In this document: piece by piece, positions 4,674 to 60,378 of the stretch
How the letters are laid out: the number at the start of each line of letters is the position of its first letter
Numbering within the stretch: the stretch's first letter is position 1
From: Streptomyces sp. NBC_00683
GTDB taxonomy: Bacteria > Actinomycetota > Actinomycetes > Streptomycetales > Streptomycetaceae
Assembly (NCBI RefSeq): GCF_036226745.1
Contig: NZ_CP109013.1
Location: forward strand, 4,340,001 to 4,404,000
Length of the DNA stretch: 64,000 nt
Reading direction: 5' to 3'
Made by a program: the position numbers and the translations under genes
Notes under the pieces: generated by a model
The model's database searches: none
What the model saw: the letters and a program-made list of their open reading frames with translations, nothing else
Told to the model about the DNA's origin: nothing

Positions 4674-5055
4674 TCGGGGGCTCCAGAAATGATTCGTGTG
4701 TTGGCGGGACATCGCCTGGCTGTCACCGTGCGCCCACGAGGAACTCGCGTAAACGCCTTAGTGCACCGCTTCACAATCACAGATCGTGATCTTTGCCCAT
4801 CGGAGGCAGGCGGCAGCAGCCATCGACAACTCGACCTGGTCACGGTACGCGCGGCTACGCCATCCGGTCAAACCGGCTCCGCGCCACCCCCTGTCTATAC
4901 ACAGCCTGTGGACAACAACTTGAACCGTGCGGGTCGCCCTGACTACCGTGGCTGAACTCCGGTTCCTTTCCTTCCCACCTGCCGGGCCTCACCCGACCCG
5001 ACCCATCCCGTCCCGAGAACCACACATTCGTGGGACATGCGAGAGAGCGTGCCTT
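4674..5055. promoter_or_regulatory. Divergent rpmH/dnaA promoter region with DnaA boxes
   Basis: 382 bp between the two divergent starts. Positions 4907-4915 read TGTGGACAA, an exact inverted DnaA box. A weaker, oppositely oriented 9-mer CTATACACA lies at 4895-4903. A pair of opposed boxes in the dnaA promoter fits known DnaA autoregulation in Streptomyces. I cannot assign -10/-35 elements with confidence. Confidence 0.7.
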
Positions 5056-6852: not shown

Positions 6853-7910
6853 CGAGCCGGCCCTCCGCAGCGCGAACCCGGGGCGCCCCGCAAGGACCAC
6901 AAGGAGTCCTCGCGGGGCGCTTTTCGTCATCCGGAGGCCTGACCACGGCTGCCGTAAGAGGGCGCCGGACCGGCAGGTGCTGCGGAAAACGGGACCGCAG
7001 AGCTTCGCCAGGAAGCTGTGAGAAGCCGCCCGGAGTCCGTCGGAAGAGACGCATGGGCCTCCGCGGAGGCCCTCCCGGACGTCCGTCCGACCCGCGCACA
7101 GCACGTTCCGAGCCACTCCGCACCCTCGCGAGACACCCCGAGTGTTCGAATACGGCCCGCGAACATGCCCTTCTCCACAGATCCATGAGGAAATGGGCAT
7201 CCACAGCCTGGGGACTATGAAGTTGTCCAGATTGCATCCACAGGGCCCGCTGTCGATACTCCATCAGGCCAGGTCACATGCCTGGGGATTTGTGGTCAAC
7301 GATGATCCACAGCCTGTGGACAGAATTTTCGTCCACAGGGGCTCGATGATGTTGTCCACCGTCGGCCCACAGGCTGGGCCCTGTTGTCCCCAGCTTCTCC
7401 ACACCCCTGTCCACTGTTCGGCAACTCAACACCCGCTTTCACTGCCGAGAGTGAAAGGCGTCACACCAAGGAGCTCGGTTGGGCTGTGGGGAACCTGGGT
7501 AAAGCTGGGGACAGCCCTGGGGAGAAGTAACCCCCACCTGTGCATCGGGTGTGCAGAACTTTCGGGTGTCCACAGAAACACCAAGTTGTCCACCGGTGCC
7601 GCCCACAGGGTCGGTGGACAAAAAACGGGCACTGACCTGCGGAAACGACGTTATCCACGGTTTCCACAGGCCCTACTACTACTGCCACTCAGAGTTAGCC
7701 AGGAATCCGCTTCGAAGTGGGGCCTGTGCACAACTTGGGCCGGGACCTCCGAGGACCGCTTGTCGCGACTTGACCCCGAGCAGCAACGAGTGTCGGTGCC
7801 GTACGTCAGACTGGACCCCGGCGTCCTCCCCTCAGCCCCTCGGCAGGGAGACCCCGAACCAGACGACGAAGGCCAGCAGGGCGAGCGAGCAACAGCAGGA
7901 GGCGGTTCCG
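6853..7910. other. oriC: Origin of chromosomal replication, oriC
   Basis: The 1058-bp dnaA-dnaN gap is a Streptomyces-type oriC. Between 7171 and 7668 I count four 9-mers that fit (T/C)(T/C)(G/A/C)TCCACA exactly: 7171-7179, 7315-7323 (inverted), 7329-7337 and 7395-7403. About fourteen more have one mismatch, including 7197, 7223, 7234, 7291, 7303, 7352, 7384, 7407, 7485, 7506, 7566, 7586, 7613 and 7651. Both orientations occur, with forward boxes dominant. No long AT-rich block is obvious, as expected for this genus. The first 300 bp after dnaA hold the dnaA terminator and few boxes. Confidence 0.95.
6883..6924 (+). terminator. dnaA terminator
   Basis: Arms GCGCCCCGC and GCGGGGCGC around a 20-nt loop, followed by TTTT. 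It lies 30 bp after the dnaA stop and separates dnaA transcription from oriC. Confidence 0.85.
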
Positions 7911-26761: not shown

Positions 26762-27673
26762 ATGGAGCAGCAGCAGCCGCCAGAAGGCCAGGACCCGTCA
26801 GCGGCCACGGAGGGCCCGCTCAGGTGCTACCGGCACCCGGGCAGGGAGACGGGGATCCGCTGTGTACGGTGCGAGCGGCCGATCTGCACCGAGTGCATGA
26901 TCAGCGCCTCGGTCGGCTTCCAGTGCCCCGAGTGCGTCCGTGAGGGCTCCGGTTCGGGGCACCACCCGGCTGCGAACCGGCCGCGCACCCTGGCGGGCGG
27001 CACCGTCGCGGAGGACCCGCGGCTGATCACCAAGATCCTGCTCGGGATCAATCTCGCGGTGTTCGTCGCCGTCTGGGTCACCGGCAGGTCCTGGCTGGTC
27101 GACGATCTCCTGCTGTTCGGCCGTGCCTATTCGGGCGATGCCGGGGCCGGTGTCGAGGGGGTCGCCGAGGGGCAGTGGTACCGCCTGGTGACGTCGATGT
27201 TCCTGCACCAGGAGGTGTGGCACATCGCCTTCAACATGATGGGCCTGTGGTGGCTCGGCGGGCCGCTGGAAGAGGCGCTGGGCCGTGCCCGGTACCTCGC
27301 GCTCTACCTGCTCTCCGGCCTTGCGGGCAGTGCGCTCACCTACTGGCTCTCCGATCCCGGGCAGGGTTCGCTCGGGGCTTCGGGCGCCATCTTCGGTCTG
27401 CTCGGTGCCACTGCCGTGCTGATGCGCCGGATGAACTACGACATGCGGCCGGTGATCGCGCTCCTCGTGGTGAACCTGATCTTCACCTTCAACCCATGGG
27501 GCGGCATCGCCTGGCAGGCGCACGTCGGCGGACTGGTCGCCGGCACCCTGATCGCGATCGCCATGGTGCACGCACCGCGCGAACACCGGAATCTCGTGCA
27601 GTACGGAGCCTGTGCACTGGTCCTGGTGGCGGTCGTCGGGATCGTCCTCGCCAGGACCGCAGCGATCATCTGA
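26762..27673 (+). CDS. Rhomboid family intramembrane serine protease with N-terminal zinc finger
   Basis: 303-aa protein. Residues 20-60 form a B-box-like zinc-binding region (CYRHPGRETGIRCVRCERPICTEC, then CPEC). The six- to seven-helix rhomboid domain has the nucleophile Ser207 in GASGAIFG and the catalytic His254 in QAHVGG. The WR-like loop (LGRARYLALYLLSG) is also present. It should cut membrane protein substrates, none of which can be named. It is convergent with crgA. Confidence 0.92.
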   Translation: MEQQQPPEGQDPSAATEGPLRCYRHPGRETGIRCVRCERPICTECMISASVGFQCPECVREGSGSGHHPAANRPRTLAGGTVAEDPRLITKILLGINLAVFVAVWVTGRSWLVDDLLLFGRAYSGDAGAGVEGVAEGQWYRLVTSMFLHQEVWHIAFNMMGLWWLGGPLEEALGRARYLALYLLSGLAGSALTYWLSDPGQGSLGASGAIFGLLGATAVLMRRMNYDMRPVIALLVVNLIFTFNPWGGIAWQAHVGGLVAGTLIAIAMVHAPREHRNLVQYGACALVLVAVVGIVLARTAAII

Positions 27674-27711
27674 GCGGAATCAGGTGTTCAGGGGCTGAGC
27701 CAAGGGCTGAG

Positions 27712-27914
27712 TTGTCCACAGAGTGTGCCGGATCTTGTGCATGACGTGGGGAACAGGTGTGCCCCTTGTCGCTGAACTGGGTTTTTCCAGTCAGGACAAG
27801 GGGCGTACCCTCCCGCGATGCGAGAGTCTGCAGTCACACCGGCGTCAACTTCGACGGAAGTTATCCACAGATCGTCTGACCTTTTCCCCTGTCTGTGGAT
27901 AACTCTGTGGGTAA
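27712..27914. promoter_or_regulatory. DnaA-box cluster outside oriC, between convergent genes
   Basis: Three exact boxes (27712-27720 TTGTCCACA; 27861-27869 TTATCCACA; 27894-27902 TGTGGATAA) and a one-mismatch copy at 27906-27914 lie between the 3' ends of rhomboid and crgA. No promoter is expected between convergent genes, so a DnaA-titration or chromosome-architecture role is more likely than transcription control. DnaA-box clusters outside oriC that affect initiation have been described in S. coelicolor; I cannot confirm this is the equivalent locus. Confidence 0.65.
27762..27803 (+). terminator. Hairpin after the rhomboid gene
   Basis: CCCCTTGTC pairs with GACAAGGGG, and an inner CTGAACTGG/CCAGTCAG stem encloses a GTTTTT loop. 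It lies about 90 bp after the rhomboid stop, inside the DnaA-box cluster. Confidence 0.6.
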
Positions 27915-27927
27915 CTTCAGGGCAGGG

Positions 27928-28182
27928 CTACTTCCACTGGGTGGAGACGCCGAAGCCGCCGGCGATGAAGCCGAAGCCGACCACGATGTTCCAGTTGCCC
28001 AGGGCGTCGATCGGCAGGTCACCCTCGGTGACGTAGAACACCACGATCCAGGCCAGACCGATCAGGAAGAGCGCCAGCATGACCGGCGCCACCCAACTGC
28101 GGTTGGTCAGCTTTATGTTGGTTGCCTGCTTCGCCGGGGGAGGCGTGAAGTCGGCCTTCTTGCGGATACGTGACTTCGGCAC
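27928..28182 (-). CDS. crgA: Cell division inhibitor/coordinator CrgA
   Basis: 84-aa actinobacterial CrgA. It has a basic N-terminus ([16 protein letters not shown]) and two membrane helices (about 31-52 and 66-80) joined by a short outside loop with [12 protein letters not shown]. CrgA interacts with FtsZ/FtsI partners and coordinates septation with aerial growth in Streptomyces. GTG start at 28182 with GGAGAG upstream. Divergent from the DUF881 gene. Confidence 0.96.
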
Positions 28183-28319
28183 GAGGGGCTCTCCTGTCGA
28201 TGCGCTGCGTGACCGCGCAGGGATCTGTGGCTGGCGCCGGGGGCGCAAGGGGGAATGCTGCCTCCCCGGGGCGTCCGTTAGCGTAGTGCTTCCGTGGCGC
28301 CTAAGGAGATAAGGGTACG

Positions 28320-29087
28320 TTGAGCAATTCTGCCGACTCTCCTCAATCGCCGGTCCGGCGCATGTCCCGATGGCCGGTCCGGGCGCTCACCGCTGCCGTT
28401 TTCGCGCTGGCCGGACTGATCTTCGTCACCAGTGCAAACACGGCCAAGGGTACCGATATCCGCACGGACTCCTCCCTGCTGAAGCTCTCCGACCTCATCC
28501 AGCAGCGCAGCGAGCACAACGCCGAGCTGGACGAATCGACCGCGTCCGTGCGTGCGGACATCGACGCACTCGCCCAGCGTGACGACGGGAGCACCAGGGC
28601 GCAGGACGCGAAGCTCGCCGCCCTGGAGCGGGCCGCCGGCACCAAGAAGCTCACCGGCGCGGCCGTCGGCGTCACCCTGAACGACGCCCCGCCGGACGCC
28701 ACGGCCAATCCCGGCTACCCCGAGCCGCAACCCAATGACCTGGTCATTCACCAGCAGGATCTGCAGGCCGTGGTCAACGCGCTCTGGGAGGGCGGGGCCC
28801 GCGGTATCCAGGTGATGGACCAGCGGCTGATCTCGACGAGCGCGGTCCGCTGCGTCGGCAACACGCTGATCCTTCAGGGCAGGGTCTACTCGCCGCCGTA
28901 CAAGGTCACGGCCGTGGGCGACCAGGACAAGCTCAGGCAGGCGCTGAACGACTCCCCGGCGATCCAGAACTACCAGCTGTACGTGAAGGCGTACGGCCTG
29001 GGCTGGAAGGTCGACGAGTACGACAGGACGACCCTTCCCGGCTACTCGGGCACGATCGATCTCCACTACGCACAGCCTGTGGAGTGA
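28320..29087 (+). CDS. DUF881 family membrane-anchored protein
   Basis: 255-aa protein with one N-terminal transmembrane helix (about residues 20-40, [17 protein letters not shown]). A coiled-coil-like stretch near 55-100 and the DUF881 domain ([41 protein letters not shown]) follow. The family lies beside crgA in many actinobacteria and is thought to be envelope or division linked; the role is unproven. The start is a rare TTG at 28320, supported by TAAGGAG 15 nt upstream and no nearby ATG/GTG before the helix. Confidence 0.87.
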
Positions 29088-47342: not shown

Positions 47343-47364
47343 GCCGTTGGAGACCGCCCTGGAG

Positions 47365-47397
47365 TTGTCCACAGGCCGGTTCCCGGAGTTGTCCACA
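47365..47397 (+). promoter_or_regulatory. Pair of exact DnaA boxes
   Basis: TTGTCCACA at 47365-47373 and again at 47389-47397, same orientation, 24 bp apart, in the 144-bp gap before the DUF2252 gene. Confidence 0.6.
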
Positions 47398-47486
47398 GGG
47401 GCAGACGGCCGTCGCGGGACAGCTGTACCGTCGTCCGCAGTTGATGTTGGACGAACGGGTCGACAAGGCGGGGGAGGCGGCGCTCC

Positions 47487-60311: not shown

Positions 60312-60356
60312 CTGCCCGTGCCTCCCTGTTGTGGACGACCTGTCTCTATCCCAGGC

Positions 60357-60378
60357 TGTGGAGAACCGTTTGTCCACA
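60357..60378. promoter_or_regulatory. Two DnaA-box-like 9-mers, inverted
   Basis: TGTGGAGAA (60357-60365) and TTGTCCACA (60370-60378), pointing away from each other, in the lrp/bkdA divergent region. Confidence 0.5.

What the first reader, a model, noticed from the sequence alone, without database searches (positions are those of the whole stretch)
27674..27927. Extra-oriC DnaA-box cluster between convergent genes
Three exact optimal DnaA boxes and one near-match lie in 203 bp between the 3' ends of rhomboid and crgA, about 20 kb from oriC. From base composition alone (about 72% GC, my rough estimate) fewer than one exact box would be expected in the whole window. As no promoter is expected between converging genes, DnaA titration or initiation control fits better than transcription control. 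The neighbour crgA acts in septation, so a replication-division link is possible.
Basis: partly seen in the sequence, partly recalled or inferred. Interest (0 to 1): 0.72.

Follow-up and report, generated by a model that had tools for sequence, protein, structure and literature searches.

The report
Ancient DnaA-binding site beside crgA
A short non-coding stretch about 20 kb from a Streptomyces replication origin carries a cluster of binding sites for the replication-starter protein DnaA, and a similar cluster sits beside the same division gene in most of the related bacteria examined, which points to an old site that helps time chromosome copying.

Summary
In detail: 27674-27927 has three exact TTRTCCACA boxes and one near-match; none of 20,000 shuffles gave three. 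At least two exact boxes lie there in 98 of 100 Streptomyces loci and 40 of 40 other Streptomycetaceae loci. Within 300 bp of the crgA 3' end, boxes with at most one mismatch occur in 54 of 58 loci from other actinobacterial families (47 exact boxes; shuffles 0.08). Two features go beyond a passive cluster: a core of nearly fixed geometry, and an outer box whose distance to the core (82-191 bp) changes in steps of about 10.5 bp, whereas the flanking distances do not. Others found the crgA-side intergenic region to be one of five main DnaA-bound regions in M. tuberculosis (in vitro) and M. smegmatis (ChIP-seq), with 'no obvious correspondence' elsewhere (PMC7738170, section 9); this site is that correspondence. 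In S. coelicolor it is probably published cluster H69 (recalled; paper not held). Most likely role: a datA-like site that restrains re-initiation by holding, perhaps inactivating, DnaA. DnaA binding in this strain and the direction of the effect are inferred.

The parts
27674..27927 (.). Intergenic region between the converging 3' ends of rhomboid and crgA; GC 57% against 68.5% for the window
27711..27721 (+). Outer DnaA box (box 1), GTTGTCCACAG
   Evidence: an outer + box was found in 122 of 140 Streptomycetaceae loci
27756..27809 (.). Long stem-loop in the spacer between box 1 and the core (z -5.2), probably a terminator of the converging genes
   Evidence: (no T-tract terminator found); replaced or absent in several relatives (14 spacers folded)
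27860..27870 (+). Core box 2, GTTATCCACAG, followed by the conserved AGATCKTC
27882..27890 (+). Weak core position TTTTCCCCT (TTTTCCCCA or TTATCCCCA in many relatives)
   Evidence: alignment
27893..27903 (-). Core box 3, GTTATCCACAG on the minus strand
27905..27915 (-).
7171..7733 (.). oriC boxes (14 with one mismatch, none exact), for comparison

Best explanation
The region is a conserved extra-oriC DnaA-binding element. DnaA binds the core (box 2, weak position, boxes 3 and 4) and the outer box 1; because box 1 lies a near-integral number of helical turns from the core, the two sets of DnaA can meet on one face of the DNA and form a bent or looped complex. Lying about 20 kb from oriC, it is copied early after initiation, so the number of strong DnaA sites rises at once; this takes up, and perhaps inactivates, DnaA and restrains a second initiation (datA-like). 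Shown here: boxes, conservation, geometry, phasing, enrichment of strong boxes around oriC. Shown by others: DnaA binding at the mycobacterial equivalent. Inferred: binding in this strain, looping, and the negative sign of the effect.
For: Conservation: at least 2 exact boxes in 98 of 100 Streptomyces and 40 of 40 other Streptomycetaceae loci; reversed-pattern control at most 1 per locus (9 of 140 loci). Other families: 54 of 58 loci and 26 of 29 families with at most one mismatch; 47 exact boxes against 0.08 in shuffles and 0 for the reversed pattern. Phasing: 24 of 95 disjoint closest pairs differ in box 1-box 2 distance by 4 bp or more, mean cos at 10.5 bp 0.68, 0 of 20,000 nulls; flanking distances 0.07 and 0.05. 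81 of 243 other GTTRTCCACAG sites lie within 150 kb of crgA in ten genomes, 9.0 expected. oriC itself has only one-mismatch boxes. DnaA bound the crgA-side region of M. tuberculosis in IDAP-seq and EMSA, and its M. smegmatis homolog in ChIP-seq (PMC7738170). Reviews say S. coelicolor DnaA-box clusters near oriC repress untimely initiation (PMC5742627, PMC4585315, passages).
Against: No binding, looping or copy-number data for this strain. The reviews' statement concerns clusters whose map positions I could not read; by recall the deletion phenotype was shown for D78, not for H69. E. coli DARS sites, with the opposite effect, are DnaA-box clusters too. Exceptions: L053 has no box, L065 one, L089 no full core; 18 of 140 loci lack the outer box; families f3, f26 and f37 have none; genome G012 shows no origin enrichment. 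Off-phase spacings: 88, 143, 150, 161.
Confidence: 0.55

Rival explanations
1. Pure passive titration: the boxes are independent sinks, one part of an origin-proximal set of strong sites; geometry is incidental.
For: 81 of 243 strong 11-mers within 150 kb of crgA in ten genomes, 9.0 expected. E. coli also shows high box density near oriC and DnaA titration (PMC12371093, abstract and passages).
Against: Independent sinks need neither the fixed core spacings nor the 10.5-bp steps between box 1 and the core.
Confidence: 0.17
2. DARS-like site: the array promotes exchange of ADP for ATP on DnaA and so favours initiation.
For: A compact multi-box core of fixed geometry would fit a DARS (DARS core recalled, not tested). 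PMC7738170 itself leaves open negative titration or positive nucleotide exchange (passage).
Against: The reviews describe the Streptomyces clusters near oriC as repressing untimely initiation.
Confidence: 0.12
3. Architectural site: DnaA bound here bridges to oriC or to the other conserved cluster (pheA-serS in the own genome) and organises the origin domain.
For: The composite TCCACAGATCKTC(n)TGTGGA had 11 hits in ten genomes: 7 at crgA and 4 about 102-111 kb from crgA; two genomes had none; control 0. Long-range DnaA contacts through domain I and a long domain II have been proposed in Streptomyces (PMC13270200, passages).
Against: No contact data were available here; not exclusive with the best explanation.
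Confidence: 0.1
4. Transcriptional role: a DnaA roadblock or hairpin terminator between converging genes, or control of crgA.
For: A strong stem-loop lies in the spacer, and boxes 2 and 3 form an inverted repeat.
Against: No promoter-like or T-tract terminator match in 27600-28350. Of 277 box 2/minus-box pairs, 58 are A in box 2 against G in the minus box, which would break the stem, and only 1 is G with G, so box identity rather than pairing is kept. The hairpin differs or is missing among the 14 spacers folded. In M. tuberculosis neither flanking gene changed in dnaA mutants.
Confidence: 0.06

Closest known systems
S. coelicolor DnaA-box clusters H69, H24, D78 (Smulczyk-Krawczyszyn et al. 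2006, J Bacteriol; content recalled, paper not held)
   Same: Strong DnaA-box clusters outside oriC in the origin region. crgA is SCO3854 (PMC4416010, passage) and by recall lies on cosmid H69, so this locus is probably cluster H69.
   Different: Conservation through the family and class, the core geometry and the helical phasing are added here; I could not check how much of this the 2006 paper shows.
Mycobacterial DnaA site Rv0010c-Rv0011c (PMC7738170)
   Same: Intergenic, at the 3' side of crgA (crgA = rv0011c, PMC3989709), near oriC, box-like sequences including a palindrome; bound by DnaA in vitro and, in M. smegmatis, in vivo.
   Different: In the presumed Mycobacteriaceae loci (f4) the visible arrangement is + + then -, the mirror of the usual + then - -; the downstream gene is not rhomboid. 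The paper does not name Streptomyces or crgA.
E. coli datA
   Same: Non-coding cluster of DnaA boxes that restrains initiation (reviews).
   Different: datA works with IHF and stimulates ATP hydrolysis (recalled and PMC4585315 abstract); neither could be tested. No sequence relation was tested.
B. subtilis DnaA-box clusters (Okumura et al. 2012, as cited)
   Same: Clusters near oriC that repress untimely initiation.
   Different: Different phylum and gene context; no comparison was made here.

Membership tests
Extra-oriC, origin-proximal DnaA-box cluster | Several strong boxes within a few hundred bp, beyond chance | tested here: met
   3 exact boxes in 254 bp; 0 of 20,000 shuffles with three
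Extra-oriC, origin-proximal DnaA-box cluster | Outside oriC but close to it | tested here: met
   about 20 kb from the oriC boxes
Extra-oriC, origin-proximal DnaA-box cluster | Conserved between species | tested here: met
   138 of 140 Streptomycetaceae loci with at least two exact boxes; 54 of 58 other-family loci with at least one box of at most one mismatch
Extra-oriC, origin-proximal DnaA-box cluster | Bound by DnaA | not testable with these tools
   Published for the mycobacterial counterpart (PMC7738170); not for this strain
S. coelicolor cluster H69 | Same map position (crgA side) | tested here: inconclusive
   crgA = SCO3854; the cosmid assignment is recalled and the 2006 paper is not held
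datA-like site | Loss raises initiation; extra copies lower it | not testable with these tools
   Reviews state repression of untimely initiation for S. coelicolor clusters in general
datA (E. coli) | IHF-dependent stimulation of DnaA ATP hydrolysis | not testable with these tools
   Biochemical property
DARS-like site | Promotes ADP release from DnaA | not testable with these tools
   Biochemical property
Intrinsic terminator | GC-rich stem-loop followed by a T-tract | tested here: not met
   Stem-loop present but no stem plus T-tract match
Known structured RNA | Rfam match at the gathering score | tested here: not met
   27400-28400: one match, sroD, 19.4 bits against a gathering score of 50, inside crgA

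The most novel reading that the evidence does not exclude
The crgA-side site is one ancestral actinobacterial replication-control element, inherited from before the split of Streptomyces and Mycobacterium: a DnaA nucleoprotein complex with a conserved box core and, in Streptomycetaceae, a second DnaA site held in helical phase so that a DNA loop forms. It would be the class's own datA (or DARS), and the mycobacterial site said to have no obvious correspondence in other bacteria would be the same element.
Probability: 0.35. Interest if true: 0.82.

Novelty: new variant of a known kind. Interest (0 to 1): 0.66.

Why it matters
How actinobacteria keep chromosome copying in step with growth is poorly understood. 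A small conserved DNA element beside crgA gives a testable target in harmless Streptomyces laboratory strains, and it links two bodies of work, DnaA-box clusters in Streptomyces and a DnaA-bound region in mycobacteria, that the papers I saw do not connect. The helical phasing predicts a DnaA loop and gives a clean half-turn/full-turn test of structured complex against passive titration.

Tried and rejected
Hairpin or RNA element as the thing conserved: rejected, because the stem-loop turns over among relatives while the boxes stay, no Rfam family matches, and box 3/4 changes at the A/G position are not compensated in box 2. Box 2-box 3 distances of about 33 and about 43 bp first looked like phased indels (note); on alignment most proved to be box 3 against box 4 with box 3 degenerate, so I do not use them as phasing evidence. 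Phasing by distinct spacings alone (0 of 20,000) ignores common descent, so I rely on disjoint closest pairs with flank controls. In that test differences above 60 bp were dropped: 0 pairs for box 1-box 2, 9 for rhomboid-box 1, 13 for box 2-crgA and 22 for the intergenic length. Naming the distant families failed: the one genome-contig scan returned 78 Streptomyces loci, one Yinghuangia and one Frankiales MAG. The identity of family f4 as mycobacterial rests on its CrgA matching the PDB entries called Cell division protein CrgA and on recall. Paper searches for Streptomyces cluster names D78/H69 (none), helical phasing of DnaA boxes (none) and a joint treatment of the two sites found no paper that makes the link; the library lacks most subscription papers.

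Full report
What is there. The 254 bp between the converging rhomboid and crgA genes hold boxes at 27712 (+, TTGTCCACA), 27861 (+, TTATCCACA) and 27894 (-, TTATCCACA), and a near-match at 27906 (-, TTACCCACA). All four extend to GTTRYCCACAG. None of 20,000 dinucleotide shuffles of the region had three exact boxes; the mean was 0.006. The oriC boxes, 14 with one mismatch and none exact, lie at 7171-7733 between the dnaA and dnaN ORFs.

Genome setting. The own genome (8.52 Mb, one contig) has 32 exact GTTRTCCACAG against 2 for the reversed pattern; 15 of the 32 lie between 4.260 and 4.400 Mb, around oriC at about 4.347 Mb. In ten genomes for which I had full lists (G013), 81 of 243 sites other than those beside crgA lie within 150 kb of crgA, where 9.0 are expected; nine genomes are enriched and G012 (1 of 15) is not.

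Conservation in the family. CrgA was found in 120 of 121 Streptomyces genomes and 81 of 81 genomes of the family sample, 66 of them outside Streptomyces. I fetched 100 of the 120 and 40 of the 66, from all 16 other genera. Exact boxes per Streptomyces locus: none in 1, one in 1, two in 5, three in 74, four in 19; in the other genera two in 5, three in 10, four in 25. The reversed pattern gave 0 in 131 and 1 in 9 of the 140 loci. The two poor Streptomyces loci are L053 (rhomboid not found beside crgA) and L065. Of the 80 named loci (78 Streptomyces, one Yinghuangia, one Frankiales MAG), 79 have two or more exact boxes; L197, the Frankiales MAG, has one. Named and unnamed sets may share species.

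Core. In 137 of 140 loci (not L053, L065, L089) a core could be aligned: TCAAC, about 9 bp, GTTATCCACAG, then AGATCKTC, a weak + position (often TTTTCCCCA), box 3 on the minus strand, and box 4 on the minus strand 12-13 bp further on. The five commonest spacing pairs from box 2 to boxes 3 and 4, (31,43), (33,45), (32,44), (30,42) and (29,42), account for 84 of the 137.

Phasing. The outer box was found in 122 of 140 loci. Over 140 unnamed and 80 named loci, with identical spacers counted once and loci without core, outer box or rhomboid dropped, 191 distinct spacers remain, 82 to 191 bp long. 181 of the 191, and 30 of the 34 distinct lengths, lie within 2.6 bp of a whole number of 10.5-bp turns (half expected); the off-phase lengths are 88, 143, 150 and 161. 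To allow for descent I paired loci by a tree of the flanking coding sequence (95 disjoint closest pairs). 71 pairs differ by less than 4 bp; the other 24 differ by 6, 9-12, 19-23, 32-33, 45 or 51 bp, with mean cos at 10.5 bp 0.68, not reached in 20,000 nulls. The flanking distances of the same pairs give 0.07 and 0.05 and the whole intergenic length -0.04. An earlier version with 61 pairs gave 0.66 for 23 changed pairs, and at least 32 changes of length class on the tree. Two boxes in the same orientation, a near-integral number of turns apart, present DnaA on one face of the helix; a loop is the natural inference. Long-range contacts through DnaA domain I and a long domain II have been proposed for Streptomyces, and a domain I dimer is reported as conserved across Actinomycetes (PMC13270200, passages).

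Beyond the family. In the class sample CrgA was found in 112 of 118 genomes, 104 outside Streptomyces; I fetched 58 of the 104, from 29 families, choosing for family spread and contig length (two loci are cut at contig ends). In the 300 bp 3' of crgA there are 47 exact boxes and 137 with at most one mismatch in 17.4 kb, against 7 and 29 in 124.8 kb of the same loci further out, 0 and 9 for the reversed pattern, and 0.08 and 3.5 in shuffles. 54 of 58 loci and 26 of 29 families have a box with at most one mismatch; 37 loci and 17 families an exact one; families f3, f26 and f37 none. The commonest spacings are - - 12-13 bp (22 pairs), + - 10-11 bp (21) and + - 23-24 bp (20): a triad like boxes weak/3/4 of Streptomyces. 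In f4, presumed Mycobacteriaceae (its CrgA matches 2mmu and 9nm2, Cell division protein CrgA), the + boxes come first, which looks like the mirror arrangement.

Independent experiment. In M. tuberculosis, DnaA pulled down five regions above all others: oriC, rpmH-dnaA, upstream of dnaB, Rv3843c-RVnc0040 and Rv0010c-Rv0011c. M. smegmatis ChIP-seq found homologs of the same five, and EMSA confirmed binding to Rv0010c-Rv0011c (PMC7738170, section 9). rv0011c is crgA (PMC3989709, table passage). [quoted passage not shown] Streptomyces is not mentioned in the paper. The region studied here is that correspondence by position (3' side of crgA, near oriC) and by boxes. Whether the two are one inherited element or repeated gains is not proven; the spread over 26 of 29 families favours inheritance. 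Variants at the mycobacterial site gave longer cells, and neither neighbouring gene changed expression in dnaA mutants (passages).

What it does. Reviews state that DnaA-box clusters near oriC in S. coelicolor repress untimely initiation (PMC5742627, PMC4585315, passages), citing the 2006 paper, which is not held. From memory that paper names H69, H24 and D78 and shows a deletion phenotype for D78. The own genome has a second cluster 107 kb from crgA between a prephenate dehydratase gene and a seryl-tRNA synthetase gene; I believe it is D78. The two sites share TCCACAGATCKTC(n)TGTGGA: in ten genomes this composite had 11 hits, 7 beside crgA and 4 about 102-111 kb away, none elsewhere and none with the reversed control; G131 and G143 had none. 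Hence the commitment to a datA-like restraining site, about 0.55, with passive titration, DARS-like action, an architectural role and transcription as rivals.

Limits. Everything about binding and function in this strain is inference. Loci were chosen, not drawn at random. The rule of 300 bp for distant families was set before the last 20 loci were fetched; those 20 agree with the first 38.

Noticed in passing
L161:5421-5716 (own genome about 4260420-4260716): Second strong DnaA-box cluster, between genes for prephenate dehydratase and seryl-tRNA synthetase, sharing the TCCACAGATCTTC...CTGTGGATAAC composite with the crgA core; probably the published D78 (recalled).
   Followed up: partly
L161:16223-16276: A + box followed by two minus boxes (the last TGATCCACA) about 77 kb on the other side of oriC, in an arrangement like the crgA core.
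   Followed up: no
L162:1044-1132: Four DnaA boxes (two exact, two with one mismatch) within 90 bp, about 35 kb from oriC.
   Followed up: no
window 4906-4916: Exact GTTGTCCACAG (minus strand) just before the dnaA ORF, fitting DnaA autoregulation; in M. tuberculosis rpmH-dnaA is one of the five bound regions.
   Followed up: no
window 47364-47398: Two exact GTTGTCCACAG in the same orientation, 24 bp apart.
   Followed up: no
window 60330-60378: Cluster of two one-mismatch boxes and one exact box within 49 bp.
   Followed up: no
window 7171-7733: oriC holds 14 boxes with one mismatch and no exact TTRTCCACA, whereas the strong boxes lie outside oriC.
   Followed up: partly
genome G012: A Streptomyces genome without origin enrichment of the 11-mer (1 of 15 within 150 kb) although two boxes beside crgA remain.
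   Followed up: no
window 26762-27673: The rhomboid protein has a sub-threshold B-box zinc finger match at residues 20-48 (21.1 bits, cut-off 24.1).
   Followed up: no
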